Below are positions 30,364 to 62,292 of a DNA stretch of 64,000 nucleotides, piece after piece. The position numbers and the translations under genes were made by a program. The stretch is from Lactobacillus hominis DSM 23910 = CRBIP 24.179 (GTDB lineage: Bacteria; Bacillota; Bacilli; Lactobacillales; Lactobacillaceae). The stretch covers positions 62,001 to 126,000 of the forward strand of contig NZ_CAKE01000001.1 in NCBI RefSeq assembly GCF_000296835.1, in the 5' to 3' direction. Numbering within the stretch: position 1 is the stretch's first letter; each line of letters starts with the position of its first letter. A model generated the notes under the pieces. The model did not search any database, was not told where the DNA came from, and worked only from the letters and a program-made list of their open reading frames with translations.

Positions 30364-30365
30364 TA

Positions 30366-37646: not shown

Positions 37647-37721
37647 TTAAAAATTTTTTATGCAAAATATAACTTATTACGTATAATCAATAGTATCAGT
37701 TTTGATTAGAAGTTGGTTTTA

Positions 37722-47941: not shown

Positions 47942-47951
47942 AAAGGAAAAA

Positions 47952-47971
47952 CAAATTCAGGTTTGTAGGGT
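47952..47971 (+). repeat. Direct repeat A1, upstream of hsdS1
   Basis: CAAATTCAGGTTTGTAGGGT, identical to 50072-50091 and 2120 bases from it. With the flanking base it contains ACAAA-TTCAGG-TTTGT, short inverted arms around a 6-base core as in tyrosine-recombinase crossover sites; it also holds the AGGGT ribosome-binding site of hsdS1. Confidence 0.9.
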
Positions 47972-47976
47972 AAAAA

Positions 47977-49059
47977 TTGATAGTAAAGCTTGAAGATGTA
48001 TGTATAAAAGGTACATCAAATATTAGACAAAAGGATCTTATTAATAAAGATGGCAAATATTCTGTTTATGGTGCATCTGGAATAGCTGGGTATTTGAATT
48101 CATTTCAGTTTGAAAAGCCATATGTTGGAGTAGTCAAAGATGGAGCAGGCATAGGAAGAGCTATGTATTTACCCCAAAATTCTTCAATTATTGGTACCAT
48201 GCAAGCTTTAATTCCTAAAGAAAATATATTGCCTAAATATCTTTATTATGCTGTTTCAGCTATGCATTTGGATAAGTATTATAGTGGAGCGACTATCCCA
48301 CATATTTATTTTAAAAACTATAAGCATGAAAAGTTTAATTTAGTATCTGTAGAAGAACAAAAACAGATTATTACTATATTTTCAGCGATAGAAAAAAATA
48401 TTAACTATAGAAATCATCAGTTGAATAAGCTAAATGAACTAATCAAAGCCCGATTTGTCGAGATGTTTGGTGATCCGATATTAAATTCTCATTATTATAA
48501 TCTGGTTAAATTAAGTAGTCTAGGAACATTAGCGAGAGGAAAATCAAAACATCGGCCTAGAAATGATCCCCAACTTTTAGGCGGTCCATATCCTTTAATT
48601 CAAACTGGGGAAATAGCAAATTCAGATATTTTTATTAAAAAATTCACTAACACGTATTCTGAATTAGGTCTTCAACAGAGTAAAATGTGGCCAAAGGGCA
48701 CTTTGTGCATAACTATTGCTGCTAATATAGCACAAACAGCAATTTTGTCATTCGACGCATGTTTTCCGGATAGCGTTGTAGGTTTTATCCCTGGAAATTG
48801 TGATATTATGCCACTTTATTTACATTATTGGTTTTCCTTCTTTCAAAAAATAATTGATTCTCAAGCATCGCAAGTAGCACAAAAAAATATAAATCTTAAA
48901 GTCCTTTCCAACCTTGAAGTAATGTTGCCTCCGAAAAATGAACAAAACGAATTTGCGAACTTCGTCCAACAAGTCGACAAATCAAAAGTTGCAGTTCAAA
49001 AATCACTTGATGAGACACAAAAATTATTTGATAGCTTAATGCAAGAATATTTTGGCTAA
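47977..49059 (+). CDS. hsdS: Type I specificity subunit, copy 1
   Basis: The 360-residue HsdS has two recognition domains. TRD1 (~1-135) begins MIVKLEDVCIKGTSNIRQKD. A central conserved spacer contains LNELIKARFVEMFGDP (~150-167), then TRD2 (~170-330), ending with FVQQVDKSKVAVQKSLDETQ KL. The start is TTG, 5 bases after AGGGT in repeat A1. Spacer and end are identical at DNA level to hsdS2 in two blocks, while the TRDs differ completely. With the recombinase that follows it forms a unit bounded by repeats A1 and A2. Confidence 0.9.
   Translation: MIVKLEDVCIKGTSNIRQKDLINKDGKYSVYGASGIAGYLNSFQFEKPYVGVVKDGAGIGRAMYLPQNSSIIGTMQALIPKENILPKYLYYAVSAMHLDKYYSGATIPHIYFKNYKHEKFNLVSVEEQKQIITIFSAIEKNINYRNHQLNKLNELIKARFVEMFGDPILNSHYYNLVKLSSLGTLARGKSKHRPRNDPQLLGGPYPLIQTGEIANSDIFIKKFTNTYSELGLQQSKMWPKGTLCITIAANIAQTAILSFDACFPDSVVGFIPGNCDIMPLYLHYWFSFFQKIIDSQASQVAQKNINLKVLSNLEVMLPPKNEQNEFANFVQQVDKSKVAVQKSLDETQKLFDSLMQEYFG
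48434..48476 (+). repeat. Direct repeat B1, central spacer of hsdS1
   Basis: A 43-base block coding for NELIKARFVEMFGDP, identical to 50558-50600 in hsdS2. Confidence 0.9.
48961..48987 (+). repeat. Direct repeat C1, 3' spacer of hsdS1
   Basis: A 27-base block coding for FVQQVDKSK, identical to 51088-51114 in hsdS2. Confidence 0.9.
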
Positions 49060-49071
49060 AAAGTGGTTTAA

Positions 49072-49103
49072 TAGTGAAAAACTCTAAAATGGGAGATTCA
49101 CTA
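49072..49103 (+). promoter_or_regulatory. Inverted repeat enclosing the recombinase ribosome-binding site
   Basis: TAGTGAA (49072-49078) and TTCACTA (49097-49103) flank an 18-base loop that contains GGGAG, and the second arm reaches the A of the start codon. The mRNA hairpin could hide the start site; an operator is the other reading. Confidence 0.5.
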
Positions 49104-50071
49104 TGGATGAGAAGTTTGTTGAAATAATAAATGAAATGGCTGAAGTGCTTAATGCGGCACAATTAAAGCGACTTCAGGAAGTAATGCTAAAGCATTTGGT
49201 CGAAAGAGAACCACGAAAAAGAAAAATTAGTAATAGGGAATACTTGGCTAAATTTCTTGAAGCTAAAAAGATGGAAGGTTGTTCTGACAGAACAATTAAA
49301 TATTACAAAGTTACCGTTGAACAGTTGCTGACTAAAGTAATCCGACCAATACGTAAAATTACTACGGAAGAAATGCGTGAATATTTAGTTGAGTATCAAA
49401 AAATCAATAATTGTGGAAAGACGACTATTGATAATATTCGCCGTAATATTTCTAGTTTTTTCTCATGGCTTGAGGAAGAAGATTATATCTTGAAAAGTCC
49501 TATGCGACGTATTCATAAGATACGATCAGAAAAATTAGTAAAAAATGTAATTACTGATGAAGATATTGAAAAGCTACGTGATGGCTGTTCTTGTCTAAGA
49601 GATGTTGCAATGATTGATTTACTGTATTCAACGGGCATTAGAGTAGGCGAACTTGTTCGACTTAACAGAAATGATATTAATTTCTCTGAACGTGAATGTG
49701 TGGTATTTGGAAAGGGAGATAAGGAAAGACGAGTATATTTTGACGCTAAATCAAAAGTACATCTTATTAATTACCTAAGAAGCAGAGAAGACGACAACCC
49801 AGCTCTTTTTGTTTCCTTAGACAAGCCAAATGATAGATTGAAAATTAGTGGAGTAGAGATTAGGTTACGACAACTTGGAAGAAAACTACATTTAGATAGA
49901 ATTCATCCTCATAAATTTAGACGGAGTATGGCTACTAGAGCTATTGATAAAGGTATGCCAATTGAACAAGTACAGAAAATTTTAGGACATTCTCAGATAG
50001 ATACAACAATGCAATATGCAATTGTTAATCAAAATAATGTAAAGGCGGCCCATAGAAAATACATATCCTAG
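49103..50071 (+). CDS. Tyrosine recombinase within the type I locus
   Basis: The 322-residue site-specific recombinase has an N-terminal SAM-like core-binding domain (~45-140) and a catalytic domain with all residues: Arg in STGIRVGELVRL (~178), Lys in FGKGDKERRV, HPHKFRRS (HxxR), LGHSQ and nucleophile Tyr in TMQYAIVNQ (~304). An N-terminal extension of ~45 residues precedes the usual start. It is placed between hsdS1 and hsdS2 on the same strand and its stop is one base from repeat A2. Such enzymes shuffle hsdS genes in other bacteria; here the target repeats are direct, so excision or exchange is expected. Confidence 0.92.
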   Translation: MDEKFVEIINEMAEVLNAAQLKRLQEVMLKHLVEREPRKRKISNREYLAKFLEAKKMEGCSDRTIKYYKVTVEQLLTKVIRPIRKITTEEMREYLVEYQKINNCGKTTIDNIRRNISSFFSWLEEEDYILKSPMRRIHKIRSEKLVKNVITDEDIEKLRDGCSCLRDVAMIDLLYSTGIRVGELVRLNRNDINFSERECVVFGKGDKERRVYFDAKSKVHLINYLRSREDDNPALFVSLDKPNDRLKISGVEIRLRQLGRKLHLDRIHPHKFRRSMATRAIDKGMPIEQVQKILGHSQIDTTMQYAIVNQNNVKAAHRKYIS

Positions 50072-50091
50072 CAAATTCAGGTTTGTAGGGT
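50072..50091 (+). repeat. Direct repeat A2, upstream of hsdS2
   Basis: Identical to A1 (47952-47971). It begins one base after the recombinase stop and provides the ribosome-binding site of hsdS2. Confidence 0.9.
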
Positions 50092-50097
50092 GCAGTG

Positions 50098-51192
50098 TTG
50101 ATTCAAAAGTTTACAACTTTATTTAAAGATGTAACTAGACAGGGTACTAAAATCCCTAAAGAAGAATATTTAAGTCATGGAAAAAATATAATAATAGATC
50201 AAGGACAAGATATTATTGCTGGTTATACAAATTGTGAAGATGGTATATTTAAAAAAATTCCAGCTATAGTTTTTGGTGATCATACAAGGATAATCAAATA
50301 TGTTGATACGCCATTTTTCTTAGGAGCAGATGGAGTAAAAGTGTTGAAATGTACTGATAAAGATGCAAACTATAGGTATTTATACTATGCTTTAAAGAAT
50401 GCACATATTCCAAATACAGGCTATAATCGACATTTCAAATGGCTTAAAGAAATAACTATAAATTATCCAGACAAAAATAGACAAAATGATATTGTTAATA
50501 TTCTTGATAAATTAGAATACATTATTAAAATGAAATCTCAAGAATTAGATAAGTTCGATGAACTAATCAAAGCCCGATTTGTCGAGATGTTTGGTGATCC
50601 TTTTAACAATCCTCAAAAATTTGATATGGCTCGATTAGGAGATATAGCGGATTTGGTTAGTGGAGGGACTCCGTCTAGAAAGAATATGAAATTTTATAAT
50701 GGTAATATTCCATTTATTACCACTGTTGCTTTAGGCCCCAATTATGTTGAGTCTAAAAATGCGCAAGATTTTATAACTTTAGAAGGTGTAAACAATTCAT
50801 CTACAAAAGTTATAAGAAAAAACACCTTATTAATAGGTACTAGAGTTGGTGTAGGAAAGACATCTATAACCAATGACAATATGGCTATTAATCAAGATAT
50901 AGTTGCACTGAATAATGTTGATATGGCAAGTTATGATTTGTTTTATTTAAAAGCTGTTTTAGATCAATATCAGTATTATTTTAATCTTCAAAAAAGAGGA
51001 GCAACTATTAAGGGAATAACATCTAAAATTATTAAACAAGTTCAGATTCCAATATCACCAATTGATCTTCAAAAAAAATATCATAATTTCGTCCAACAAG
51101 TCGACAAATCAAAATTTGAAAATATAGTATACTTAAATAAAACGCTCTCAAGCAAAATTCTCAGTCAATTAGGAGATGCTATCCGTGACTAA
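50098..51192 (+). CDS. hsdS: Type I specificity subunit, copy 2
   Basis: The 364-residue HsdS has TRD1 (~1-140, LIQKFTTLFKDVTRQGTKIP), the same central block as copy 1 (DELIKARFVEMFGDP ~155-168) and TRD2 (~170-335, MARLGDIADLVSGGTPSRKN) ending in FVQQVDKSKFENIVYL. The recognition domains are unrelated to those of hsdS1. The last ~20 residues differ from the usual VQKSLDETQKLFDSLMQEYF end seen in copy 1. Start is TTG at 50098 (GTG 50095 is closer to the ribosome-binding site). The 3' end overlaps hsdR, so this is the copy in the expressed operon position next to hsdR. Confidence 0.9.
   Translation: MIQKFTTLFKDVTRQGTKIPKEEYLSHGKNIIIDQGQDIIAGYTNCEDGIFKKIPAIVFGDHTRIIKYVDTPFFLGADGVKVLKCTDKDANYRYLYYALKNAHIPNTGYNRHFKWLKEITINYPDKNRQNDIVNILDKLEYIIKMKSQELDKFDELIKARFVEMFGDPFNNPQKFDMARLGDIADLVSGGTPSRKNMKFYNGNIPFITTVALGPNYVESKNAQDFITLEGVNNSSTKVIRKNTLLIGTRVGVGKTSITNDNMAINQDIVALNNVDMASYDLFYLKAVLDQYQYYFNLQKRGATIKGITSKIIKQVQIPISPIDLQKKYHNFVQQVDKSKFENIVYLNKTLSSKILSQLGDAIRD
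50558..50600 (+). repeat. Direct repeat B2, central spacer of hsdS2
   Basis: 43 bases identical to B1 (48434-48476). Confidence 0.9.
51088..51114 (+). repeat. Direct repeat C2, 3' spacer of hsdS2
   Basis: 27 bases identical to C1 (48961-48987). Confidence 0.9.
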
Positions 51193-54100
51193 CTTTGATT
51201 ATTTATTAGAAGAACCACAATTTAAAGATTTCGTGGAAATTGCAATAGCTGCTGAGAAAGTAGCTGTTATTGATCCTGCAACATCGGTTATTGACTGCCG
51301 ACGTGCAATGGAATTGGCAGTTAAGTGGATGTATTCGGTTGATAAAGATTTAAGAACGCCATACCAGGATAAATTGGTAACATTGATAAATACCTTAGAC
51401 TTTAAAGATATTGTTGATCCTAATACTTGGCAGGGTTTGGATTTGATTCGAAGATTAGGAAACGTAGCAGTACATACTAATCGAAAAGTATCTCTAGATG
51501 AAGCTGTTTTATGTTTAAAGGCTTTATTTAGTTTTTTTGACATGCTTGATTATTGTTATGGTAGCAACTATCAAAAGAAAGATTTTGATAAATCTCTTAT
51601 TGGAAAATATCGTTTGGAATTTGTTCCAAAAGTAGCGCCAGTCAAAGAAACTACGGTTTCCCTTGATAAACTGACGAAGAAGAATGAATCTTTGCAAGAA
51701 TCTATGACTGCGCAAAGAAAGGCACAGGAAGATAGCTATAATCCAAAGCCTTTTGGAATATCAGAATTCAAAACTAGAAAAATTTATATTGATACCATGT
51801 TAGCAGAAGCTGGCTGGGTTGAAGGGCAAAATTGGTTAAATGAAGTAGAACTTAAAGGAATGCCTAATAAGGCAGGCATAGGATACGCTGATTATGTTCT
51901 ATATGATGATGCACACCAACCTCTTGCCCTTATTGAGGCAAAGAAAACGTGCAAAGATGTTGCTGTTGGTCGTCAGCAAGCAAAACTATATGCTGATTTA
52001 TTAGAGAAAAAATACGGACGTAGACCAGTTGTATTTTTAAGTAATGGCTTTGAAACAAGAATTATCGATAACCAATATCCGGAAAGACAGGTTTCATCTA
52101 TTTATTCTAAGCGTGATTTAGAAAAGTTATTTAATTTACAAAAAGTTCGTCAACCATTAACTAATATCACAGTTGATGATAATATTGCTGGTCGGTATTA
52201 CCAAAAAGCTGCTATTCAAGCAGTGTGTGAAAGTTTTTCAAAGGAAAATAGACGCAAAGCGTTATTAGTCATGGCAACGGGATCGGGTAAAACTAGAACT
52301 GCAGTGGGCTTGGTTAAGGTTCTTTTGAATGCTGGATGGATTAAACATGTCTTATTTTTGGCTGATAGGGATGCACTAGTAACACAGGCTAAAAGAAGCT
52401 TTGTAAACTTGTTACCAGATTTATCTTCCACTAATTTAGTCGAAGATAAGTCAAATTATAATGCACGATGTGTATTTTCTACCTATGCAACAATGATGAA
52501 TGTTATCGATACTGTAACAGATGATGATAAAAAGAAGTTATATACTGCGGGACATTTTGATCTAATTATTGTCGATGAAGCTCACAGGTCAATTTATAAT
52601 AAATATCGAAATATATTCACTTATTTTGATGCTCCATTGGTTGGACTCACTGCAACTCCTAAAGATGATATTGATAAAAACACATATTCGATTTTTAATC
52701 TAGAAGATGGCGTTCCGACTTATGGCTATGATTTGGCACAAGCAGTTGATGATGGTTACTTAGTGCCATATAAATCTATCGAAACTCATTTAAAGTTTAT
52801 AGAAAATGGTATTAATTACGATGATCTAAGTACTCAAGAAAAAGAAGAATATGAAGAAACTTTCACTGATGAGGATGGTGATTTACCAAAGAAGATAGAC
52901 TCAGGAAAGTTGAATAAATGGTTGTTTAATAAAGATACAATTCGTAAAGTTTTGAATATCTTAATGAATCAGAGTCTAAAGATTGATTATGGCGAAAAAA
53001 TAGGGAAAACTATTATTTTTGCTAAAAATCATCGTCATGCAGAAGAAATTCTAAAAGTTTTCAATGAAGAGTATCCTCAATTTAGTAGAAATACTCATGG
53101 ACAACCATATGCAACCGTAATCGATAATTACACTAACTATTCTCAAAGTGCAATCGATGAATTTTCAGATCTAGATAAGTTGCCACAAATTGCTATTTCA
53201 GTTGATATGTTGGATACGGGTATTGATGTACCTGAATGCTTAAATTTGGTATTTTTCAAAAAAGTAATGAGCAAAGCAAAATTCTTCCAAATGATCGGAC
53301 GTGGAACTCGATTGTGTCCGCACTTATTAGATGGAAAAGATAAGCAAGAATTTTATATTTTTGATTTTTGTGATAACTTCCATTTTTTCCGTATGGGAAA
53401 AGGTCATGAAGCAGGAGTTCAAGAAACTTTGCAAAGTGCTCTATTCAACTTAAAGATAGAATTAACTCATAAGTTGCAGGAAGAGCCTTATCAAACAGAT
53501 GATTTTAAGCAATATCGTAAAACATTGGTTGAAGACTTATCTAAAAAGGTTAAAGAATTAAATAGAAATAATTTTGCTGTTAAGCAACATATTGCTTACG
53601 TTGATAAGTTTTCTCAAATTGAAAATTATAATAATTTGACTTATGAAGATATTGTAAATGCTCAGAAGGAATTATCTCCATTGATTCTTCCTGATAATGG
53701 TGAACCTAATGCTCTAAGATTTGATGCTTTAGTTTATAAAATGGAACTTGCAAAAATGTCGCAAGAATCATATGGGCGCCTCAAAATTGACCTATGCAAT
53801 AAGATTTCTAAACTCTCTGATTTAATGACCATCCCACAAGTTAAGGAAAAGAAAGATTTAATTAAGAAAATATTACAACCAGAATATGTTGAATCTACTG
53901 ATGTGAAAGATTTAGAGCATATCCGTCAAAATATTAGAGATCTTATTCAGTACCTTCCTAAGAAAGGAACGGTATATTATACAAATTTTGCTGATACTGT
54001 ATTAGATTCGACTATTCATGACGCTGAACTTGAAACAGACACTTTAAAGAACTATAAGGCAAAGGCAGAATTTTATATTAAACAACATCAAAGTGAAAAT

Positions 54101-54517
54101 CTTATGGTGAGGATTAGAGACAATGAACCTTTGAGCAGTCAGGATTTAAAAGAATTAGAATCCATTTTATGGCAAAAGTTGGGAAGTAAGGAAGAATATC
54201 AAAAGGAAATTGGTAATAAGGCACCAGGCGAATTTGTACGTAGCATAGTTGGGTTAGATATGCATGCGGCTAAAAAGGCTTTTAATAAATATCTAGATAC
54301 TGTTCCTTTAAATAAGCAACAAATTTATTTTATAAATGAAATTATCGAGTATATTGTTAAAAATGGAACACTGACTGATATGCATGTTCTACAGGAGTCT
54401 CCATTTACAAATCAAGGTTCGATCTCTGAACTTTTTGAGTCAGATATAACTATTTGGTTAAAAGTTAAAACAGCAATTGATGAAATCAATAGTAATGCTG
54501 GAGTAGTTGTAGCTTAA
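51185..54517 (+). CDS. hsdR: Type I restriction endonuclease subunit R
   Basis: HsdR translocates and cuts unmethylated DNA. The 1110 residues have an N-terminal DUF4145-like domain (~1-130, CRRAMELAVKWMYSVD), the nuclease motif ADYVLYDD...LIEAKKT (~235-255), Walker A MATGSGKTRTA (~362), DEAH box VDEAHRSIYNKY (~463), GLTATPKDD, DMLDTGIDVPE and GRGTRL (~700), and an EcoEI-type C-terminal domain. All catalytic parts are intact. The GTG at 51185 gives VTNFDYLLEEPQF at 9 bases from AGGAG; the ATG at 51176 is too near. It overlaps hsdS2 by 8 bases. Confidence 0.94.
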   Translation: MTNFDYLLEEPQFKDFVEIAIAAEKVAVIDPATSVIDCRRAMELAVKWMYSVDKDLRTPYQDKLVTLINTLDFKDIVDPNTWQGLDLIRRLGNVAVHTNRKVSLDEAVLCLKALFSFFDMLDYCYGSNYQKKDFDKSLIGKYRLEFVPKVAPVKETTVSLDKLTKKNESLQESMTAQRKAQEDSYNPKPFGISEFKTRKIYIDTMLAEAGWVEGQNWLNEVELKGMPNKAGIGYADYVLYDDAHQPLALIEAKKTCKDVAVGRQQAKLYADLLEKKYGRRPVVFLSNGFETRIIDNQYPERQVSSIYSKRDLEKLFNLQKVRQPLTNITVDDNIAGRYYQKAAIQAVCESFSKENRRKALLVMATGSGKTRTAVGLVKVLLNAGWIKHVLFLADRDALVTQAKRSFVNLLPDLSSTNLVEDKSNYNARCVFSTYATMMNVIDTVTDDDKKKLYTAGHFDLIIVDEAHRSIYNKYRNIFTYFDAPLVGLTATPKDDIDKNTYSIFNLEDGVPTYGYDLAQAVDDGYLVPYKSIETHLKFIENGINYDDLSTQEKEEYEETFTDEDGDLPKKIDSGKLNKWLFNKDTIRKVLNILMNQSLKIDYGEKIGKTIIFAKNHRHAEEILKVFNEEYPQFSRNTHGQPYATVIDNYTNYSQSAIDEFSDLDKLPQIAISVDMLDTGIDVPECLNLVFFKKVMSKAKFFQMIGRGTRLCPHLLDGKDKQEFYIFDFCDNFHFFRMGKGHEAGVQETLQSALFNLKIELTHKLQEEPYQTDDFKQYRKTLVEDLSKKVKELNRNNFAVKQHIAYVDKFSQIENYNNLTYEDIVNAQKELSPLILPDNGEPNALRFDALVYKMELAKMSQESYGRLKIDLCNKISKLSDLMTIPQVKEKKDLIKKILQPEYVESTDVKDLEHIRQNIRDLIQYLPKKGTVYYTNFADTVLDSTIHDAELETDTLKNYKAKAEFYIKQHQSENLMVRIRDNEPLSSQDLKELESILWQKLGSKEEYQKEIGNKAPGEFVRSIVGLDMHAAKKAFNKYLDTVPLNKQQIYFINEIIEYIVKNGTLTDMHVLQESPFTNQGSISELFESDITIWLKVKTAIDEINSNAGVVVA

Positions 54518-54566: not shown

Positions 54567-54989
54567 ATGAAAAAAGTAATCAAAGTTGTTGGCGCAGCTA
54601 TTCTTAATCAGGAACAAAATAAAATTTTAGTAGCTAAAAGAGACTCAGATAGAATTTTACATGATATGTGGGAATTTCCTGGCGGAAAGATTGAAAAAGG
54701 AGAGACGCCACAACAAGCTATTAAAAGAGAAATTAAAGAAGAGCTTAATGTAGATATTAAAGTTGGACCTCAAGTGGGAAAAAGCACCGAATTTGAATAT
54801 GACTTTGGAATTGTGCATTTGACAGTTTTTTATTCTAGGTTGTTAACTACTGATTTTGAACTGGTTGCTCACAGCACAATGAAATGGGTAACGAAAAAAG
54901 AATTATCAGATCTGATTTGGCCCGCTGCTGATAAAGAAATTGTTGCAGAACTAAAAAATCAAAAGTTAGAGGATATCAACTTTGAATAG
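54567..54989 (+). CDS. NUDIX hydrolase (MutT-like)
   Basis: The 140-residue protein hydrolyses a nucleoside diphosphate derivative, of the 8-oxo-dGTP or (deoxy)NTP pyrophosphatase type. The NUDIX box is complete: GGKIEKGETPQQAIKREIKE EL near residues 35-56, after DMWEFP. It overlaps the following helicase gene by 8 bases, so the two are translationally coupled; this suggests a role beyond general nucleotide-pool cleaning. It is 50 bases downstream of hsdR. Confidence 0.9.
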   Translation: MKKVIKVVGAAILNQEQNKILVAKRDSDRILHDMWEFPGGKIEKGETPQQAIKREIKEELNVDIKVGPQVGKSTEFEYDFGIVHLTVFYSRLLTTDFELVAHSTMKWVTKKELSDLIWPAADKEIVAELKNQKLEDINFE

Positions 54990-57897
54990 TAATTTAAGAC
55001 AGGATTTACTAAACACAGTTAAAAACAATTTTATCGATAAAGATGATTATGTCGGAGTAGGTAATTTATCTGCAGGATTAGTTTTAAATCAGTCAACAGA
55101 TACCAATGTTTATCGTGTTTTAAAAATGGAGTTAGCTACTTGTGAGTCTTTTACTTTTGCAGTAGCTTTTATTAATCACCAAGGTTTAGCCACTTTATTA
55201 ACAGTTTTACGTGATTTACATAAACGCGGGATAAAGGGACGTATTCTAACTTCAACATACTTGTATTTTAATAAACCTGAAGTTTTTCGCGCCTTACTTG
55301 AAATACCTAATGCTGAGGTTCGTTTATTTAATGAAAAAAATGCGAAAAACGAAGTACTTCCTTTTCATGCTAAAGGTTATCTCTTTGAACACAAAAAATA
55401 TATGTCAGCTATTATTGGAAGTTCTAATTTAACTTCTAGTGCTATTTTAAATAATTATGAATGGAATTTTAGAGTTAACTCTCTTACTAATGCTGAATTA
55501 ACTCAAGAACTTAGTCTTCAAATTAAAGATGAATGGCAAAAGGCTATTCCATTAACTTGGCAGTGGTGTGAAAGATATCGTTATGAATATGAAAACAAAC
55601 ATAATGATGAGAATATCCTAGATCATCCTCAAGTACCATACTATGTTGAGGATCGTCGACCAATTGAACCAAATTTAATGCAAAAATCTGCTCTAGGAGA
55701 AATTGCCGATTTAAGAAATAAAGGAATCGATAAAGCCTTAATTATCTCTGCTACTGGTACAGGAAAGACGTATTTAGGAGCTTTTGATGTTAAGAACTAT
55801 CAACCCAAGAGATTCTTATTTGTTGTGCATCGTGAGCAAATTTTAGAAGATGCACTAGAAAGTTTTTATAAAGTTATTGGCGGAAATAGGCACGATTATG
55901 GTATTTATAGTGGAAATCATCAAATAGATTTAAACACAAAATATGTCTTTGCGACCTCGCAAACCTTGTCAAAAGATGAACGACTGACACAATTTTCTAA
56001 GGATGAATTTGATTACGTGATGTTTGATGAAGCTCATCATTTAGGCGCTAATCAATATCTAAAGATTTTTAACTATTTTAAACCTAAATTTTGTTTAGGT
56101 ATGACCGCTACTCCTGAACGAACTGATGATTTTAATATTTTTAAGTTATTTGATTATCATATTGCGTATGAAATACGACTTCAAGATGCTTTGGAGAATG
56201 AGATGCTAGTTCCTTTCCAGTATTATGGAGTTGAAGATTATGTTCATGATAATCAGGTAATTAGTGATGCAAGTTCTCTAAAAGAATTAGTTGCTGATGA
56301 GCGTGTTGATTATATTATTCAGCAAACGAAGTATTATGGTTATTCTGGAGATACACTGCACGGTTTGATATTTTGTAGTAGCAATGCAGAAGCAGAAGAA
56401 CTTGCTGAGGGTCTTGAAAATCGTGGTATCAAGGCTAAAGCGTTATCAGGAGAAGATAGTATTAAAACTCGTGATCAAGTAGTTAAAGAACTAGAAAAAG
56501 GTAAGATTAATTATATAGTTACGGTTGATATTTTTAATGAAGGAATCGATATTCCATGCATTAATCAAATTGTTTTGCTTAGAAGCACACAGTCTAGTAT
56601 TATTTTCGTTCAACAGCTAGGGCGTGGCTTACGTAAATTTCCTGGTAAAGATTATTTAACAGTAATTGATTTTATTGGTGCATATGACAATAATTATCTA
56701 ATCCCAATAGCTTTAACTGGAGATAAGGCTCACAATAAAGATAATGTAAAGGATGAATTAGAAATTGAACCGATTTATGGTGTATCAGTTATTAATTTCA
56801 CACATGTAGCTAAAGAACGAATTTTTGAATCGATCAATCACTCTAATTTAACTGTTAAAAGAAAATTACGAGAAGAGTATATAAATGAAAAAAGAAAAAT
56901 TGGTCATATTCCTCAGATGACAGACTTGCAATCTAGTTCGATTGATTGTCAAGTGATTGCAGATAAGTATAAAAATTATTACAAATTTTTGCTTGAGATG
57001 GGGGAAGAACTAGATAATTTAAGTGATTATCAGCAAAAAATCCTTTCATTTTTGACGGTAGTTTTGTCTAATGGAAAAAGAAAACATGAATTACTACTTC
57101 TGAGAAATCTTATTGAAAAAGACAAAATTAATGATGAACTTTATGAAAAAATATTAAAACAAAATAATTGTTACTATGATCAAGAAACGGTAAATTCTGT
57201 AAATTATATTTTATCGTTGGACTTTTTCAAGGGGAAAGCTCTTCCTAATGAACAATCATATGGTGGACAAGCACTTGTAATATATAAAAATGGTGAATAT
57301 CGGCTAAATTCAATTTTAAGGGAAAATTTAAAAAATAATTTATTTTTTGAATTATTTAAAGATGCTATTGAAACGGGACTATTACGTTCAAAAAAATATT
57401 TATCTAATAAATCTTTTACAATAGGTGAAAGATATTCTCGTTTGGATGCCTGTCGTTTATTAAATTGGAAACATGTTGTTTCTGGTCAAAATATTGGTGG
57501 TTACCGTTTTGATGACGAATTAAAGAATTGTCCTATTTTTGTGACTTACGATAAGCGAAAAAGTAATTCTATTAATTATCCCGATCGTTTTATTAGTCCG
57601 AGTGTCATCAATATTTATTCAAAAACTAATCGAAAACTAGATAGTAGTGAAGTAGCCAAATTTAAGGACTCAGAGATGTCGTTGTATTTATTTGTGAAGA
57701 AATCAAATGATGACGGTGTTAGTTTTATATATTTGGGTCAATGTAAGCCAGAAGAAAGAAGCTTTACTCAAGAATATCAGAAGATTACTCATAAATCCTT
57801 GGAGAAAAAGTTAGTTCCAGTAGTTTCCTTTAATTTGCAATTGAGTACACCTGTTGATTTAAATAGATACTATATGTTAACGAAACTAGATTATTAA
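54982..57897 (+). CDS. PLD-nuclease / DEAD-box helicase / DUF3427 protein
   Basis: The 971-residue protein combines an N-terminal HKD-type (phospholipase D-like) nuclease domain (FHAKGYLF ~127 and IIGSSNLTSSA ~140) with a superfamily 2 helicase. The helicase shows SATGTGKTYLGA ~255, FDEAHHLGANQYL ~347, GMTATPERTDD ~371, FNEGIDIPCINQ and QQLGRGLRKFP ~545. A C-terminal DUF3427 region (~740-960, YSRLDACRLLNWKH and FVTYDKRKS) follows. This architecture is known from bacterial DNA-repair or defence helicases. One HxK motif is visible, so nuclease activity may need a dimer. It starts inside the NUDIX gene. Confidence 0.88.
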   Translation: MNSNLRQDLLNTVKNNFIDKDDYVGVGNLSAGLVLNQSTDTNVYRVLKMELATCESFTFAVAFINHQGLATLLTVLRDLHKRGIKGRILTSTYLYFNKPEVFRALLEIPNAEVRLFNEKNAKNEVLPFHAKGYLFEHKKYMSAIIGSSNLTSSAILNNYEWNFRVNSLTNAELTQELSLQIKDEWQKAIPLTWQWCERYRYEYENKHNDENILDHPQVPYYVEDRRPIEPNLMQKSALGEIADLRNKGIDKALIISATGTGKTYLGAFDVKNYQPKRFLFVVHREQILEDALESFYKVIGGNRHDYGIYSGNHQIDLNTKYVFATSQTLSKDERLTQFSKDEFDYVMFDEAHHLGANQYLKIFNYFKPKFCLGMTATPERTDDFNIFKLFDYHIAYEIRLQDALENEMLVPFQYYGVEDYVHDNQVISDASSLKELVADERVDYIIQQTKYYGYSGDTLHGLIFCSSNAEAEELAEGLENRGIKAKALSGEDSIKTRDQVVKELEKGKINYIVTVDIFNEGIDIPCINQIVLLRSTQSSIIFVQQLGRGLRKFPGKDYLTVIDFIGAYDNNYLIPIALTGDKAHNKDNVKDELEIEPIYGVSVINFTHVAKERIFESINHSNLTVKRKLREEYINEKRKIGHIPQMTDLQSSSIDCQVIADKYKNYYKFLLEMGEELDNLSDYQQKILSFLTVVLSNGKRKHELLLLRNLIEKDKINDELYEKILKQNNCYYDQETVNSVNYILSLDFFKGKALPNEQSYGGQALVIYKNGEYRLNSILRENLKNNLFFELFKDAIETGLLRSKKYLSNKSFTIGERYSRLDACRLLNWKHVVSGQNIGGYRFDDELKNCPIFVTYDKRKSNSINYPDRFISPSVINIYSKTNRKLDSSEVAKFKDSEMSLYLFVKKSNDDGVSFIYLGQCKPEERSFTQEYQKITHKSLEKKLVPVVSFNLQLSTPVDLNRYYMLTKLDY

Positions 57898-58334: not shown

Positions 58335-58988
58335 TTATTTATTTAATTCTTTAAAGTGGTCTTGGATTAGGATAAATCCAATCCAAGCTACGAAGCAAAG
58401 GGTGAAGACGGCAATTAGACCTGCATAATGCCAAATTTCTAAATGAGTGTGCTTAATAATTGCTGTTTCAACATAGCTAAGTCCTTGCATCATATATACG
58501 GCTGGAGCGATATACCAGTAAGCAGCCGGATAGTCTGAACTGATTCGGTTCTTTATATTTGCTTTTGAAATGTATAAAGCAAAGATCTGCATAAATACGT
58601 ATACCACGAAGAACCAGCCGGGAAAGTTAGAGATAGGGATGTTAAAGAATGTACTGCCATCTTCCCAAACCCAGTTTCTGTTTAAAGTAGAAGCAGATGG
58701 ATCTAATACAACATCCCACATTACCATGATAAAAGTTGCTGTGAATGGAACTAGAAATGTTTTGATACCAGATAATTTCTTTTCATATTAATTGTTAATT
58801 ACAAGTGATAAAATCCAAGCAAAGTAACCCATTCCAAAGTAGGCTGACATAATAACAATTGGAATGTCCCATATTCTTGAACCAGAAATATCATAGTGAT
58901 AATTTCCAAATGGGAAACCTACATGAATACTGAAACCTTCAAAGAAATTGCTGACTACCCAGCATATAATAAAGAATAGGACAAACCA
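58335..58988 (-). pseudogene. Carotenoid-biosynthesis-family (DUF422-like) membrane protein, broken
   Basis: The minus strand encodes a hydrophobic protein from NWFVLFFIICWVVSNFFEGF through GNYHYDISGSRIWDIPIVIM to LVINN, then a TAA at 58788-58790. It goes on in the same frame with YEKKLSGIKTFLVPFTATFI, MWDVVLDPSAS, NIPISNFPGWFFV and the normal end. The MWDVVLDP and IPISNFxGWF motifs fit the CruF/DUF422 family. The N-terminus is missing at ~58988, where sequence of another gene begins. Premature stop plus 5' truncation make it a pseudogene, although the 130-residue 3' part could be translated. Confidence 0.75.
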
Positions 58989-59218
58989 ATTCCGTACTTG
59001 TATGGTGCAGGTAAATTAGGTGGTAATCAGCATCAAGGTGGAGGGGTAACCTGAGCTGAGTGTTTTATTTTTGGTAAGATTGCAGGCGAGCACTAAAAGA
59101 GATTCCAGAGCTTATCATTAAAGAAAATAACCCAGATGTTGATGCGGTTTCTGGTGCATCTGCTACAAGTCGCGCAATCAGTGAAGCTGTCCGCAAGGCT
59201 TTGAAAAATGTGAAATAA
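58989..59218 (+). pseudogene. Fumarate reductase / FMN-binding flavoprotein remnant
   Basis: On the + strand, YGAGKLGGNQHQGGG, a TGA stop and AECFIFGKIAGEH match the end of the FAD domain of bacterial fumarate-reductase-type flavoproteins. After a second stop and a frameshift, ALKEIPELIIKENNPDVDAV and SGASATSRAISEAVRKAL match the end of an FMN-binding domain, ending with TAA at 59216-59218. Several hundred codons are missing. Both pieces come from the same kind of flavoprotein, probably once one gene. Confidence 0.75.
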
Positions 59219-59220
59219 GT

Positions 59221-59266
59221 CGGTTGAAAAGAGAATTGTTGTCTTTTTCAACGGCAAAACGGTCGA
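59221..59266 (+). repeat. Extra motif copies left of the Mrr cassette
   Basis: CGGTTGAAAA (59221-59230) faces TTTTTCAACGG (59244-59254) as an inverted pair, and AACGGTCGA occurs at 59258-59266. These relate to the motif of the flanking 52-base repeat and start directly after the flavoprotein remnant. Confidence 0.6.
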
Positions 59267-59280
59267 GAAAATTGAATAAT

Positions 59281-59332
59281 CGCGTGCAAAACGGTTGAAA
59301 AAACGGTCGAATAGCTTTTCGACCGTTTTTTG
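59281..59332 (+). repeat. 52-bp flanking direct repeat, left copy
   Basis: 44 of 52 bases equal the copy at 61591-61642, no gaps. It holds AACGGTTGA (59290), AACGGTCGA (59302) and the inverted TCGACCGTT (59319). The last two form a hairpin with an 8-base loop followed by T6. It lies immediately upstream of the -10 box of the AlbA-ATPase gene. Confidence 0.88.
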
Positions 59333-59339
59333 ATATAAT
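59331..59339 (+). promoter_or_regulatory. Extended -10 promoter of the AlbA-ATPase/Mrr operon
   Basis: TGATATAAT is a consensus extended -10 element; the -35 position falls inside the hairpin of the left repeat, so a protein bound there would block RNA polymerase. Confidence 0.6.
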
Positions 59340-59358
59340 GAAACTGAGGTGATGACAG

Positions 59359-60621
59359 ATGCGCGAAACTAAAGATTTAGAATTTAAAGAACAAGTTACA
59401 AATACTTTTCTAAAAACTGTCAGTGCTTTTGCTAATTATGGTACTGGAAAAATAAAATTTGGAATAAAAGATAATGGGCAAGTAATAGGCTTAAACAATC
59501 CAGTAGATGCCTGCATAAATATTGAAAACAAAATCAATGATTCAATTAAGCCCAATCCTGATTATAATCTAATAATTGATGATAAAACTAAAGTTATTAC
59601 TTTAATAGTAAATAAAGGAAATAATGCGCCATATTTCTATAAATCAAAAGCATATAAAAGAAATGACAGCGCATCTGTAGAAGTAGATCCAGTCGAATTA
59701 TCTCGTTTGATTTTAAAATCTGAAAATAAATCTTATGATAGTTTAGTGTCAAATAATCAAGATTTAACTTTTAACATGCTTGAACAGGCTTTAAAAGATC
59801 ACTTAGGAATCAGTAACTTAACCAGCGATATTCTAATTACTCTAGAGTTGAAAAATCGTGAAGGTCACTATACTAATGCGGGTGCTCTTTTAGCAGACAA
59901 AAATAATTATCGTGGAATTGATATTGTAAGATTCGGTGAGAATATTAACATTATGCTTGATCGGCTGGCTTATGAGCAGATGTCTATTCTCGAAGAATAT
60001 AAGCAAGCAATTGAAAAATATCGTCAATATTATCAACATGAAGAAATTATTGGCTCTGAACGAAAGAAGATACAATCTATCCCCGAAAAAGCATTTCGTG
60101 AAGCTGTAGCTAATGCCTTAGTCCATCGTACTTGGGATGTAAATGCTCAAATTAAAATTTCTATGTTTGATGATCGAATTGAAATTATTTCTCCGGGTGG
60201 ACTGCCAGATGGTTTGAGCAAAGAAGAATATTTAGCAGGCCAGATTTCTATTTTAAGAAATCCAATTATTGCAGGCGTATTTTTTCGTTTAGGATTAATT
60301 GAACAATTTGGAACTGGTGTACAGCGTATTTTAAAAGAATATAGTCACAGCATTATTCAACCACAATTTTTGATTTATGATAATTCAATAACTATTAAAC
60401 TCCCAGTTGTTCAAGAATCGCTTCAAGATTTAACTGGAGATGAGCAAAAAGTTTATAGTGTGCTGAAAGATAAAGAATTGAGTACTTCAGAAATTGTTCA
60501 AATGACTGGTTTTGGGAGAACTAAGACCTTAAATGTGATTAAAAAACTAATTGATGATGGTTATGCTACAAAAATTGGTAATGGACGCAGTACGAAGTAT
60601 CGAGTAGCAAAAAATAAGTAA
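59359..60621 (+). CDS. Schlafen/AlbA_2-domain ATPase with C-terminal winged helix
   Basis: The 420-residue protein has an N-terminal AlbA_2 (Schlafen-like) domain (~1-120: ETKDLEFKEQVTNTFLKTVS, AFANYGTGKIKFGI), a middle GHKL-type ATPase C-terminal region (HATPase_c_4: AFREAVANALVHRTWD ~245, ISPGGLPDG ~277, FGTGVQRI ~318) and a winged helix (~365-415: STSEIVQMTGFGRTKTLNVI). Such proteins are often annotated as RecG-like or transcription regulators. Here the gene heads a two-gene unit with an Mrr-like endonuclease and is flanked by repeat operators, which the winged helix might bind. The start ATG has GAGGTGATG upstream. Confidence 0.85.
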   Translation: MRETKDLEFKEQVTNTFLKTVSAFANYGTGKIKFGIKDNGQVIGLNNPVDACINIENKINDSIKPNPDYNLIIDDKTKVITLIVNKGNNAPYFYKSKAYKRNDSASVEVDPVELSRLILKSENKSYDSLVSNNQDLTFNMLEQALKDHLGISNLTSDILITLELKNREGHYTNAGALLADKNNYRGIDIVRFGENINIMLDRLAYEQMSILEEYKQAIEKYRQYYQHEEIIGSERKKIQSIPEKAFREAVANALVHRTWDVNAQIKISMFDDRIEIISPGGLPDGLSKEEYLAGQISILRNPIIAGVFFRLGLIEQFGTGVQRILKEYSHSIIQPQFLIYDNSITIKLPVVQESLQDLTGDEQKVYSVLKDKELSTSEIVQMTGFGRTKTLNVIKKLIDDGYATKIGNGRSTKYRVAKNK

Positions 60622-60638
60622 TATAGGATTTTTAGATA

Positions 60639-61580
60639 ATGATTGATTATAAAACACTGAAACATAGTGATAATGGAATGCCAACTTGGGATGCTTTTCT
60701 AGGTCCTGTATTACAGGTGGCAAGTACAAAAGATGAGTGGATAGGAAAAGAATTAGACCAAGCTGTACTTGATGAAGTCAATTTACCTGAAGAACTTGCT
60801 AATTTAAGATATGCATCTAAATATCACGATTTAATTGCATATAATCGTGTCGGATGGGCCTTAAGTGAGTTCAAATTGTCAGGTTTACTTAATTCACCTA
60901 GAAGAAGTATCTATAGGATAAGTGAAACAGGAAAAGAAGCATTAGATAAATACGGACTAAATATTACACGTGATTTTGTTCATTCTCAACCAGCATATAT
61001 TGAGCATCAAAGTAATTTGAAGAATAAAAAAGAAGTTGATAATGACATCACAGAAGATCAAACTTTTGAATTAACTGAAAAGCAAATCAAAGATTGGTTT
61101 GATAAGCAAAGTAGTGACTTATCTGAAGAATTGATTGCTAAATTACGTGGTACTGATCCATATCAATTTGAACATATGATGGTTCGACTGTTAAATAAAA
61201 TGGGGTACAAAGGAACTAACGGACAGTCTGTTGTAACGCAAAAGTCTAATGATGGTGGTATTGATGGAATTATAAATCAAGATCTATTGGGCTTGCGGAC
61301 TGTTTATGTGCAAGTTAAGCGTTATGGCGAAAAGAATATTGTAGGTAGTCCTGAAATTAATAGCTTTTTTGGTGCACTTAGACGTAAACAAGCAGATCGT
61401 GGTGTGTTTATCACTACTTCTTCTTTTACTAATGATGCGAGAGACGCAGCAAAACAGTTAAACATTGCCTTAGTTGATGGTGAAATGCTGACAAACTTGA
61501 TGATTCAATATAAAGTTGGCGTACAGGTTAGTCAGATTTATGAATTGTATGATATTGATGATGATTTTTTTGAAGAATAA
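60639..61580 (+). CDS. Mrr-family restriction endonuclease
   Basis: The 313-residue protein has an Mrr N-terminal winged-helix domain (~1-110, MPTWDAFLGPVLQVA to ISETGKEAL) and a PD-(D/E)xK catalytic domain (~165-300): FEHMMVRLLNKMGYKGT, SNDGGIDGII with the Asp near 207, and VYVQVKRYGE with the QxK near 223. Catalytic residues are intact. Mrr enzymes cut methylated DNA. It lies 17 bases after the AlbA-ATPase gene, in the same operon, and is followed at once by the right 52-base repeat with its terminator hairpin. If it cuts methylated DNA, the products of the two local HsdM enzymes are a possible conflict or partner. Confidence 0.9.
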   Translation: MIDYKTLKHSDNGMPTWDAFLGPVLQVASTKDEWIGKELDQAVLDEVNLPEELANLRYASKYHDLIAYNRVGWALSEFKLSGLLNSPRRSIYRISETGKEALDKYGLNITRDFVHSQPAYIEHQSNLKNKKEVDNDITEDQTFELTEKQIKDWFDKQSSDLSEELIAKLRGTDPYQFEHMMVRLLNKMGYKGTNGQSVVTQKSNDGGIDGIINQDLLGLRTVYVQVKRYGEKNIVGSPEINSFFGALRRKQADRGVFITTSSFTNDARDAAKQLNIALVDGEMLTNLMIQYKVGVQVSQIYELYDIDDDFFEE

Positions 61581-61590
61581 TCTATTTTCT

Positions 61591-61642
61591 CGCGCGCGAA
61601 ACGGTCGAAAAAACGGCTGATTAGCTAATCGACCGTTTTTTG
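61591..61642 (+). repeat. 52-bp flanking direct repeat, right copy
   Basis: Same layout as the left copy: AACGGTCGA (61600), AACGGCTGA (61612) and inverted TCGACCGTT (61629), spacings 12 and 17 as on the left. The hairpin plus T6 can terminate the mrr transcript; the repeat ends at the cutC ribosome-binding site. Confidence 0.88.
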
Positions 61643-61656
61643 GGAGGATGAAAATC

Positions 61657-62292
61657 ATGATAAAAGAAGTTTGCATTGAAAATTTTACTGATGTATCAAG
61701 ATTTATAAAATTAGGAGCTGATCGTTTTGAATTAAATAGCGATTTAGCAGCAGGAGGTCTCACGCCATCTTTTGGTATGATAAAAAAGACGGTCGAGGTT
61801 GCTCATCAAAGCCATATCTCAGTTGAAACGATGATTCGTCCGCGTGGTGGCAATTTTGTTTATTCAGATAATGAGATTGCAATAATGAAAGATGATATTC
61901 AAATGGCTGCGCTGCTTAATAGCGATGGAGTAGTTTTTGGCTGTTTGACAAGCGATAACAAGCTAGACAAAGATAAGATGAAACAGCTGATTGATCTGGC
62001 ACGCAGTTTAAATTTAGAAATTGTGATGCATATGGCATTTGATGAAATTGCGCCAGAGCAATGGGAAGAAACTATTGACTGGCTCGCAAAGCATGGCATT
62101 AAAAGAATTCTCACTCATGGCGGTCCACTCAGTCAATCAATGTTTAATACAATTCCAAATCTTAGAAAAGTTATCGATTTAGCTAGAAATAAGATCGAAA
62201 TTTTGCCAGGTGGTGGAATTAACTCAGATAATTTATTCCAAGTTGATAAATTGCTACATTGTGACCAATATCATGGAAGCAAAATAATCTAA
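61657..62292 (+). CDS. cutC: Copper homeostasis protein CutC family
   Basis: The 211-residue TIM-barrel protein has the family start EVCIENFTDVSRFIKLGADR, FELNSDLAAGGLTPS, RPRGGNFVYSDNE and the end ILPGGGINSDN. Its role in copper handling is only weakly supported in general. The ATG at 61657 is 9 bases after GGGAGG; the ATG at 61648 abuts that site. The site itself borders the right repeat of the Mrr cassette, and no own promoter is visible upstream, so expression may depend on read-through. Confidence 0.88.
   Translation: MIKEVCIENFTDVSRFIKLGADRFELNSDLAAGGLTPSFGMIKKTVEVAHQSHISVETMIRPRGGNFVYSDNEIAIMKDDIQMAALLNSDGVVFGCLTSDNKLDKDKMKQLIDLARSLNLEIVMHMAFDEIAPEQWEETIDWLAKHGIKRILTHGGPLSQSMFNTIPNLRKVIDLARNKIEILPGGGINSDNLFQVDKLLHCDQYHGSKII

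What the first reader, a model, noticed from the sequence alone, without database searches (positions are those of the whole stretch)
59221..61642. Two-gene AlbA-ATPase + Mrr cassette framed by 52-bp direct repeats with matching motif triplets
Seen: an AlbA_2/Schlafen-type ATPase with a winged helix and an Mrr-like endonuclease, 17 bases apart, sit between two gapless 52-base direct repeats (44/52 identical). Each repeat has motif AACGGYYGA twice and its inverse once, with identical spacings of 12 and 17, and a hairpin with T6. The left edge abuts a flavoprotein remnant, the right edge the cutC ribosome-binding site. Known: Mrr cuts methylated DNA; AlbA_2 ATPases occur in defence contexts. Inferred: a self-contained restriction module whose ATPase may act as regulator on the repeats, or which moves by recombination between them. 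I do not recognise it as a named system.
Basis: partly seen in the sequence, partly recalled or inferred. Interest (0 to 1): 0.82.

Follow-up and report, generated by a model that had tools for sequence, protein, structure and literature searches.

The report
Self-operator-bracketed bacterial Schlafen ATPase gene
A bacterial cousin of the antiviral Schlafen proteins sits in a Lactobacillus genome between two copies of what looks like its own DNA switch, and in relatives the switch sequence changes together with the protein's DNA-reading part, so the unit looks like a self-regulating cassette whose passenger gene (here a DNA-cutting enzyme) can be swapped.

Summary
In detail: an ATPase gene (59359-60621) and a Mrr gene (60639-61580) lie between two direct repeats (53 nt, 85% identical), each with the same half-site array. 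But the repeats belong to the ATPase, not to the pair: Mrr is beside 1 of 71 full-length ATPase relatives, and the ATPase beside 2 of 11 full-length Mrr relatives. In 41 of 62 non-redundant loci the ATPase relatives have an upstream palindrome of the same geometry but different sequence. It covaries with the protein's helix-turn-helix more than with other parts, and often ends 18-19 nt (here 7) before the -10 box. A second copy directly after the gene occurs in 12 of 70 loci, against 0 of 128 control ORFs. The protein's N-terminus superposes on the SLFN13 RNase lobe, followed by a GHKL-type ATPase and a winged helix. Best reading: an autoregulated bacterial Schlafen bracketed by its cognate operators. 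In sister Lactobacillus genomes the palindromes remain while the cargo between them differs or the ATPase is missing. Binding, repression, RNase activity, looping, recombination and phage defence are inferred, not shown. The domain architecture is known; my searches (open-licence papers only) found no description of the bracketing, diversifying operator.

The parts
59258..59332 (+). Left operator array: outlying half-site 59258-59266, direct half-site 59290-59298, palindrome core 59303-59326 (8-nt arm, 8-nt spacer, 8-nt arm); repeat copy L = 59280-59332
59331..59339 (+). Extended -10 box (TG-n-TATAAT), starting 7 nt after the palindrome
   Evidence: (sequence)
59359..60621 (+). ATPase: Schlafen/AlbA_2 RNase-like domain, GHKL-type ATPase, winged helix-turn-helix (HTH helices 376-383 and 387-399 in the model)
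60639..61580 (+). Mrr-type nuclease (type IV restriction-like): the cargo gene here
61590..61642 (+). Right operator array without a promoter (repeat copy R); palindrome core 61613-61636, T6 tail
58980..59218 (+). Remnant of the flavoprotein gene that is intact and followed by the same palindrome in sister genome G014
61648..62292 (+). cutC, downstream neighbour (not considered part of the unit)

Best explanation
The ATPase is a bacterial Schlafen-family protein (RNase-like lobe + GHKL-type ATPase + winged helix) that controls its own promoter by binding the palindromic operator. The site lies at or over the -35 region, so simple autorepression is most likely. wHTH and operator diverge together, giving the copies different, private operators. 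In some members, as here, a second operator copy at the far end closes the unit: it can serve as terminator (hairpin + T6 here) and probably as an auxiliary binding site. What lies between the two copies (here Mrr) is co-expressed cargo. On a trigger (phage or other stress, perhaps sensed through the ATPase domain) repression is lifted; the RNase-like domain arrests growth while Mrr cuts modified DNA. Recombination between the two copies can delete or replace what lies between and leave one palindrome. Seen in sequence: operator geometry, its position at the promoter, HTH-operator covariation, the second copy, cargo differences between sisters. Inferred: binding, repression, RNase activity, trigger, looping, recombination.
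For: Upstream 8-8-8 palindrome in 27 of 62 non-redundant loci vs 0.65 (mononucleotide shuffles) and 4 of 62 (-1000..-880); 31 of 71 ATPase genes vs 16 of 145 other ORFs of the same loci, Fisher 1.4e-7. Partial Mantel, operator vs HTH, controlling for residues 1-350: r 0.258 (12 residues) and 0.370 (367-399), n 41, p 2e-4; of 68 windows of 12 residues the best four start at 373, 385, 379, 367; window 385-396 is top in the three thinned sets and without Lactobacillus. Operator end to -10: 18-19 nt in 19 of the 35 loci (of 41) with a good -10; 7 nt in the window, L026, L221. Extra direct half-site exactly 12 nt upstream in 13 of 41. Second copy just downstream: 9 of 41 operators; 12 of 70 genes vs 0 of 128 control ORFs, Fisher 2e-6. 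In G010 and G034 the exact palindrome occurs only at the two edges of the ATPase gene. A relative of 29% identity (L041) has 30 identical nt upstream and 10 nt after its stop. Sister loci. Fold: SLFN13 203-324, Z 10.2, 94 residues, rmsd 1.9; DIP2311 (3LMM) Z 23, 327 residues, rmsd 14. E3 70/71, E8 69/71, D38 61/71; SLFN13 triad E205/E210/D248 from passages of PMC5862951.
Against: 21 of 62 non-redundant loci gave no operator by my criterion, and 58 of 70 genes lack the downstream copy: the bracket is not universal. In the cross-locus control 118 of 1354 pairs also gave some copy (0.038 per pair downstream, 0.066 upstream), because several loci share similar operators. The Mantel permutation does not fully model phylogeny; at the hardest thinning (n 11) p is 0.07. 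'CG in both arms' was a selection criterion, so CG conservation is circular. D38 is N in 9 of 71. The palindrome is also terminator-like in many loci (T-run in 23 of 41), which alone could explain a copy after the gene. Exact palindromes persist in four genomes with no ATPase match and in G068, which has only distant relatives, so they may have another use. Phage defence was not tested.
Confidence: 0.72

Rival explanations
1. The palindromes are merely bidirectional intrinsic terminators that insulate a laterally moved gene; no binding by the ATPase.
For: T-run after the palindrome in 23 of 41; palindromes stay in sister genomes without the ATPase.
Against: Covariation with the HTH specifically; preferred spacing to the -10 box; extra direct half-site at 12 nt, useless for a terminator; 18 of 41 operators lack a T-run.
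Confidence: 0.12
2. The repeats are ends of a non-autonomous mobile cassette (att-like or REP-like); the regulatory role is secondary. The ATPase gene moves between sites and the direct repeats are footprints of insertion. (Not exclusive of the best explanation.)
For: 15 Lactobacillus ATPase loci lie in about 11 flanking contexts. thiI and rsuA are 47-104 nt apart in 19 of 30 rsuA loci, while G010 has about 6.5 kb there with the bracketed ATPase and G068 one palindrome. Repeats of 48-69 nt, 96-99% alike in L026, L028, L204 and L260, with homology beyond the palindrome.
Against: No recombinase between the repeats; 58 of 70 genes lack the second copy; the left flank of the G068 palindrome is not clearly that of G010, so a clean excision scar is not shown; the G010 insertion is larger than the bracketed unit and holds a Mutator-family transposase, which may have brought it.
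Confidence: 0.35
3. ATPase + Mrr form a dedicated two-gene restriction system, the ATPase being a partner or controller of Mrr.
For: 17-nt spacing and one apparent promoter; the pair also in L. taiwanensis.
Against: Mrr in 1 of 71 full-length ATPase loci. Of 11 full-length Mrr relatives 2 have the ATPase beside them; others stand next to a second Mrr or other genes. The L. taiwanensis ATPase has stop codons while its Mrr is open.
Confidence: 0.1
4. The upstream repeat is an RNA antitoxin or attenuator (type III toxin-antitoxin-like) for the RNase-like protein.
For: Repeats plus hairpin precede a putative RNase gene.
Against: The -10 box lies after the palindrome (59334-59339), so the array is upstream of the predicted transcript; similar order in many relatives; no Rfam family at gathering level.
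Confidence: 0.05

Closest known systems
Schlafen-family RNase fused to a minimal histidine kinase and wHTH (bacterial Schlafens; BREX survey PMC12839542, which cites a preprint on anti-phage bacterial Schlafens)
   Same: Same three-part architecture (passages of PMC12839542)
   Different: Here solitary or with Mrr; no BREX core gene among the window proteins scanned with PADLOC. Bracketed by its own diverging palindromes, which the passages that I saw do not mention
TrlG of Photorhabdus (Alba_2 + HATPase_c_4; PMC7554251)
   Same: Two shared Pfam domains; mutations in trlG let the strain grow at 36 C, i.e. the intact protein restricts growth there (passages)
   Different: TrlG sits in an operon with a separate small regulator TrlR and TrlF; the passages name only two Pfam domains
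DIP2311 (PDB 3LMM), uncharacterised protein
   Same: Closest solved relative over most of the chain, Z 23, 327 residues, rmsd 14
   Different: About 20% identity; domains arranged differently (large rmsd); entry title gives no function
SLFN13 N-domain (PDB 5YD0)
   Same: Residues 1-96 superpose at 1.9 A on the lobe that carries E205/E210/D248
   Different: Here one such lobe per chain plus ATPase and wHTH
Mrr type IV restriction enzymes
   Same: Mrr_N + Mrr_cat, PADLOC mREase_IV 1.7e-60
   Different: Behind a Schlafen-type operator only in this group among the 11 full-length Lactobacillus relatives

Membership tests
Bacterial Schlafen (SLFN_AlbA_2 + HATPase_c_4 + wHTH) | AlbA_2/Schlafen fold | tested here: met
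   Pfam 1e-18; SLFN13 superposition, 94 residues, 1.9 A, Z 10.2
Bacterial Schlafen (SLFN_AlbA_2 + HATPase_c_4 + wHTH) | Acidic triad of the RNase site | tested here: met
   E3 70/71, E8 69/71, D38 61/71 (9 N); equivalence to E205/E210/D248 inferred from the aligned ranges, not from coordinates; D38 the least certain
Bacterial Schlafen (SLFN_AlbA_2 + HATPase_c_4 + wHTH) | GHKL-type ATPase domain and wHTH | tested here: met
   HATPase_c_4 2.1e-20, DIP2311-like_C 9.5e-9; HTH in the model
Bacterial Schlafen (SLFN_AlbA_2 + HATPase_c_4 + wHTH) | RNase activity / anti-phage effect | not testable with these tools
   no bench data
Autoregulator with cognate operator | Palindrome at the own promoter, covarying with the recognition helix | tested here: met
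Autoregulator with cognate operator | Demonstrated binding and repression | not testable with these tools
   no bench data
Autonomous mobile element | Encodes its own recombinase or transposase | tested here: not met
   only ATPase and Mrr between the repeats
Non-autonomous mobile cassette | Empty site with one repeat | tested here: inconclusive
   G068 keeps one palindrome at the G010 site; right flank homologous, left flank unclear
Type IV restriction (Mrr) | Mrr_N and Mrr_cat domains | tested here: met
Dedicated two-gene ATPase-Mrr system | Conserved gene pair | tested here: not met
   1 of 71 ATPase loci; 2 of 11 Mrr loci
Type III toxin-antitoxin | Transcribed RNA repeats before the RNase gene | tested here: inconclusive
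   predicted -10 lies after the repeats; no transcript data; no Rfam match

The most novel reading that the evidence does not exclude
A widespread class of single-gene bacterial Schlafen cassettes carries private operators that co-evolve with the recognition helix and, in a subset, mark both edges of the unit; the protein bridges the two marks into a closed loop that silences itself and whatever cargo lies inside, and recombination between marks makes the unit an integrase-free slot for exchanging defence cargo.
Probability: 0.2. Interest if true: 0.82.

Novelty: new variant of a known kind. Interest (0 to 1): 0.62.

Why it matters
Bacterial Schlafens are a newly recognised class of putative defence RNases, and how such a potentially harmful enzyme is kept silent is open. 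The data give a directly testable answer: each reads its own diverging operator. The natural series allows a specificity code to be measured (in classes drawn up after the fact, 0 of 16 GCAACG-type operators and 6 of 6 CGGTCG/CGGACG-type ones go with 'FG' before the recognition helix). It also explains how a Mrr gene can come under Schlafen control without being its partner.

Tried and rejected
Common terminator of this genome: rejected, the half-site arrays are found only here in the 1.93-Mb genome. Conserved ATPase-Mrr pair: rejected. Known RNA element: four hits far below the gathering scores, all to eukaryotic or plastid families, taken as chance. Empty-site test at the L. psittaci locus (GATase neighbour): the sister G021 has neither repeat nor ATPase and another terminator, so it says nothing on excision. 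cutC as anchor for the window's own empty site: orthologues are at most 67% identical; the flavoprotein gene and Mrr were used instead. In G014 the stretch between the two palindromes holds a 229-aa ORF without Pfam hit, and G069 a 304-aa one without Pfam hit; that both look like surface-protein genes is my reading by eye. An early idea that the repeat of L041 lies inside the coding region was wrong: it starts 10 nt after the stop. Orientation of '-' loci was wrong (those loci are not gene-oriented); redone. Rows left out: of the ATPase loci in hand I gave only 83 (distant or fragmentary ones such as L030, L038, L041, L051-L060, L066, L105 were not given); 12 of 83 were then dropped (truncated, with stops, or under 120 nt upstream), and 9 of 71 as near-identical upstreams. 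Flank after the stop is short in a few of the 71 (1 and 218 nt the shortest). Control ORFs are mechanical ORFs of at least 150 aa, not checked genes. The -10 control covers the 38 of 41 loci with over 950 nt upstream. Further copies of the operator upstream of the gene were seen in 4 of 41 loci. Literature: searches listed no paper on operators of this family; subscription papers and preprints are not held, and the preprint on bacterial Schlafens (10.1101/2025.07.24.666596) was seen only as a citation. Of PMC12839542, PMC7554251, PMC5862951 and PMC7641849 I saw passages only.
Full report
What is in the sequence. Two direct repeats (59280-59332 and 61590-61642, 53 nt, 84.9% identical) frame an ATPase gene (59359-60621) and a Mrr gene (60639-61580). 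Each repeat has two direct half-sites AACGGYYGA 12 nt apart and one inverted copy 17 nt on, i.e. a direct half-site followed by a palindrome of two 8-nt arms around an 8-nt spacer (59303-59326; 61613-61636). A further half-site lies at 59258. In the window 8 half-sites are found against 0.70 expected; in the whole genome 25, of which the 7 in these two arrays are the only clustered ones. The left copy is followed after 7 nt by an extended -10 box (59334-59339); the right copy has no promoter and runs into the cutC leader.

What the ATPase is. Pfam gives SLFN_AlbA_2, HATPase_c_4 and a DIP2311-like C-terminal winged helix. An AlphaFold2 model from 55 aligned sequences has mean pLDDT 90.7. Among solved structures DIP2311 (3LMM) covers most of the chain (Z 23, 327 residues, rmsd 14, so domains are placed differently), and residues 1-96 superpose on SLFN13 203-324 (Z 10.2, 94 residues, 1.9 A). 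The acidic residues of SLFN13 needed for RNA cleavage (E205, E210, D248; passages of PMC5862951) have likely counterparts E3, E8 and, allowing for an insertion, D38, conserved in 70, 69 and 61 of 71 homologues; this equivalence is my reading of the aligned ranges. The domain order equals the 'Schlafen RNase - minimal histidine kinase - wHTH' proteins that a BREX survey reports in at least 1017 taxa (PMC12839542, passages). A relative with the first two domains, TrlG, restricts growth of Photorhabdus at 36 C: mutants in it grow there (PMC7554251, passages).

How widespread. At E <= 1e-60 the protein finds relatives in 9 of 397 genomes of its taxonomic family, 4 of 398 of the class sample, 37 of 264 of the order of an Erysipelotrichaceae locus and 27 of 249 of the order of an Anaerococcus locus. 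At E <= 0.001, 30 of 75 genomes of the genus have a match. I compared 83 loci, 71 of them full length with at least 120 nt upstream, 62 with non-redundant upstream regions.

The palindrome belongs to the ATPase gene. An 8-8-8 palindrome lies in the 120 nt before the gene in 27 of 62 loci (mononucleotide shuffles 0.65; region -1000..-880: 4 of 62). With other ORFs of the same loci as control: 31 of 71 versus 16 of 145 (Fisher 1.4e-7). By a looser criterion on arms that also asks for CG in both arms, 41 of 62 have an operator. Sequences differ widely (CGGTCGA, GCGGACGA, TGCAACGA, TCAATCGT, GCGAACGC and others). The position is preferred: in 35 of 41 a good -10 box follows; the palindrome ends 18-19 nt before it in 19 of these, and 7 nt before it in the window, L026 and L221, about one helical turn closer. 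A good -10 within 24 nt is found in 29 of 41 against 9.6 in the control. An additional direct half-site exactly 12 nt upstream occurs in 13 of 41 (11 nt in 5; at most 4 at any other upstream offset from 8 to 45).

The palindrome covaries with the helix-turn-helix. Operator distance correlates with recognition-region distance after removing distance over residues 1-350: r 0.258 (12 residues) and 0.370 (residues 367-399), n 41, p 2e-4. Scanning 68 windows along the protein, the four best start at 373, 385, 379 and 367, i.e. the HTH. Window 385-396, the recognition helix, is the top window in the three sets thinned to divergent members and without Lactobacillus; the 367-399 test gives p 2e-4 (n 32), 0.0014 (n 19) and 0.07 (n 11) in the thinned sets. 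This is the main evidence that the repeats are binding sites of the ATPase; the test does not model the tree fully.

The second copy. For 9 of 41 operators a copy lies directly after the gene (13-76 nt after the stop; in the window after Mrr), in direct orientation. The cross-locus control gives 0.038 copies per pair in 1500 nt downstream, and 118 of 1354 pairs had some copy, partly because operators of different loci can be alike. By local alignment of upstream and downstream regions 12 of 70 ATPase genes against 0 of 128 control ORFs are bracketed (Fisher 2e-6). Some of the 12 are close relatives (L248/L249/L250 and L204/L252), so about 9 independent cases, plus the window, which is not counted because Mrr intervenes. 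Homology runs beyond the palindrome (68/69 nt in L. psittaci, 65/66 in L. pasteurii). Outside this set, a relative of 29% identity (L041) has 30 identical nt upstream and again 10 nt after its stop codon. The exact 26-nt CGGTCGA palindrome occurs in 8 of 75 genomes of the genus, always with an 8-nt spacer although 2-12 was allowed; the reversed control gives 0. In G010 and G034, which have intact ATPase genes and this palindrome, it occurs only at the two edges of the gene.

Sister loci. (a) Of 30 rsuA loci fetched (44 genomes matched), thiI lies 47-104 nt upstream in 19 (18 without such a palindrome, one with an unrelated one); G010 carries the bracketed ATPase there within about 6.5 kb of extra DNA that also holds a Mutator-family transposase, and G068 carries one palindrome and no ATPase there. 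The right flank of that palindrome matches G010; the left flank does not clearly. (b) At the window's locus, G014 has flavoprotein - palindrome - 229-aa ORF - palindrome; G069 and G070 have broken flavoprotein - diverged palindrome with -10 box - Mrr - a Sigma70_r4 gene (366 aa in G058 and G071, interrupted in G069/G070) - palindrome, with no ATPase; G058 has the same right part and, on another contig, flavoprotein - palindrome; a second G069 contig has palindromes around a 304-aa ORF and ion-channel fragments; L. taiwanensis (G071) has a broken ATPase - Mrr - Sigma70_r4 gene - palindrome. G069 and G070 are incomplete assemblies (79% and 71%), so their order is less certain. Thus cargo changes while palindromes stay. 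(c) The 15 Lactobacillus ATPase loci compared fall into about 11 flanking contexts.

The Mrr gene. 19 of 75 genomes of the genus have a relative at E <= 1e-20; of 11 full-length ones of at least 60% identity, 2 have the ATPase beside them, 5 a palindrome, 6 neither within the flanks read (one of these, L269, has only about 270 nt upstream). Conversely a Mrr relative lies in 1 of the 71 full-length ATPase loci, the window. Mrr is therefore cargo.

Mechanism. Most likely the ATPase represses its own promoter through the operator and is released under a trigger, raising itself and the cargo. Autoregulation: supported by sequence, not shown. RNase effector: inferred from fold and residues. Second operator as terminator plus auxiliary site, with a loop of about 1.4-2.3 kb: possible, no direct evidence. 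Loss or exchange of cargo by recombination between the copies: suggested by sister loci. Anti-phage role: inferred from the family and from the restriction-rich surroundings.

Novelty. The protein architecture is known. My searches (open-licence PMC only) listed no description of its diversifying, gene-bracketing operators. I rate it a new variant of a known kind, interest 0.62.

Noticed in passing
window 46427-54517: Type I restriction-modification locus with two hsdS genes (47977-49059, 50095-51192) around a tyrosine recombinase (49103-50071), a layout typical of phase-variable specificity switching (recalled).
   Followed up: partly
window 28789-31571, 37713-40472, 54982-57897: Further defence-like genes: a second type I methylase/specificity pair, a SNF2 helicase with DpdE/DrmD-like matches, and a PLD-helicase-DUF3427 type IV-like enzyme; the finding lies in a defence-rich region.
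   Followed up: partly
L187:9425-10525 (G058), also G069, G070 (interrupted) and G071: A gene with a Sigma70 region 4 domain follows Mrr in four sister genomes but not in the window.
   Followed up: partly
L041:4895-4924 and 6282-6311: In a distant relative (29% identity) a 30-nt iteron-like sequence lies upstream of the gene and again, identical, 10 nt after the stop: the bracket may reach far beyond the close family.
   Followed up: partly
L057, L060: Tandem AAAAAGCGTT-type repeats beside distant ATPase homologues in Lactobacillus.
   Followed up: no
L106 vs L107 (G010 vs G068): The loop of the palindrome upstream of rsuA is inverted between the two genomes (TTTTGTTTT vs AAAACAAAA in gene orientation).
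   Followed up: no
L189:10062-13361 (G069): A 1099-aa SIR2-like protein next to the same palindrome slot.
   Followed up: no
window 58335-58727: Fragment of a carotenoid-biosynthesis-like (Caroten_synth) membrane protein gene, matching only positions 110-194 of 209 of the profile.
   Followed up: no
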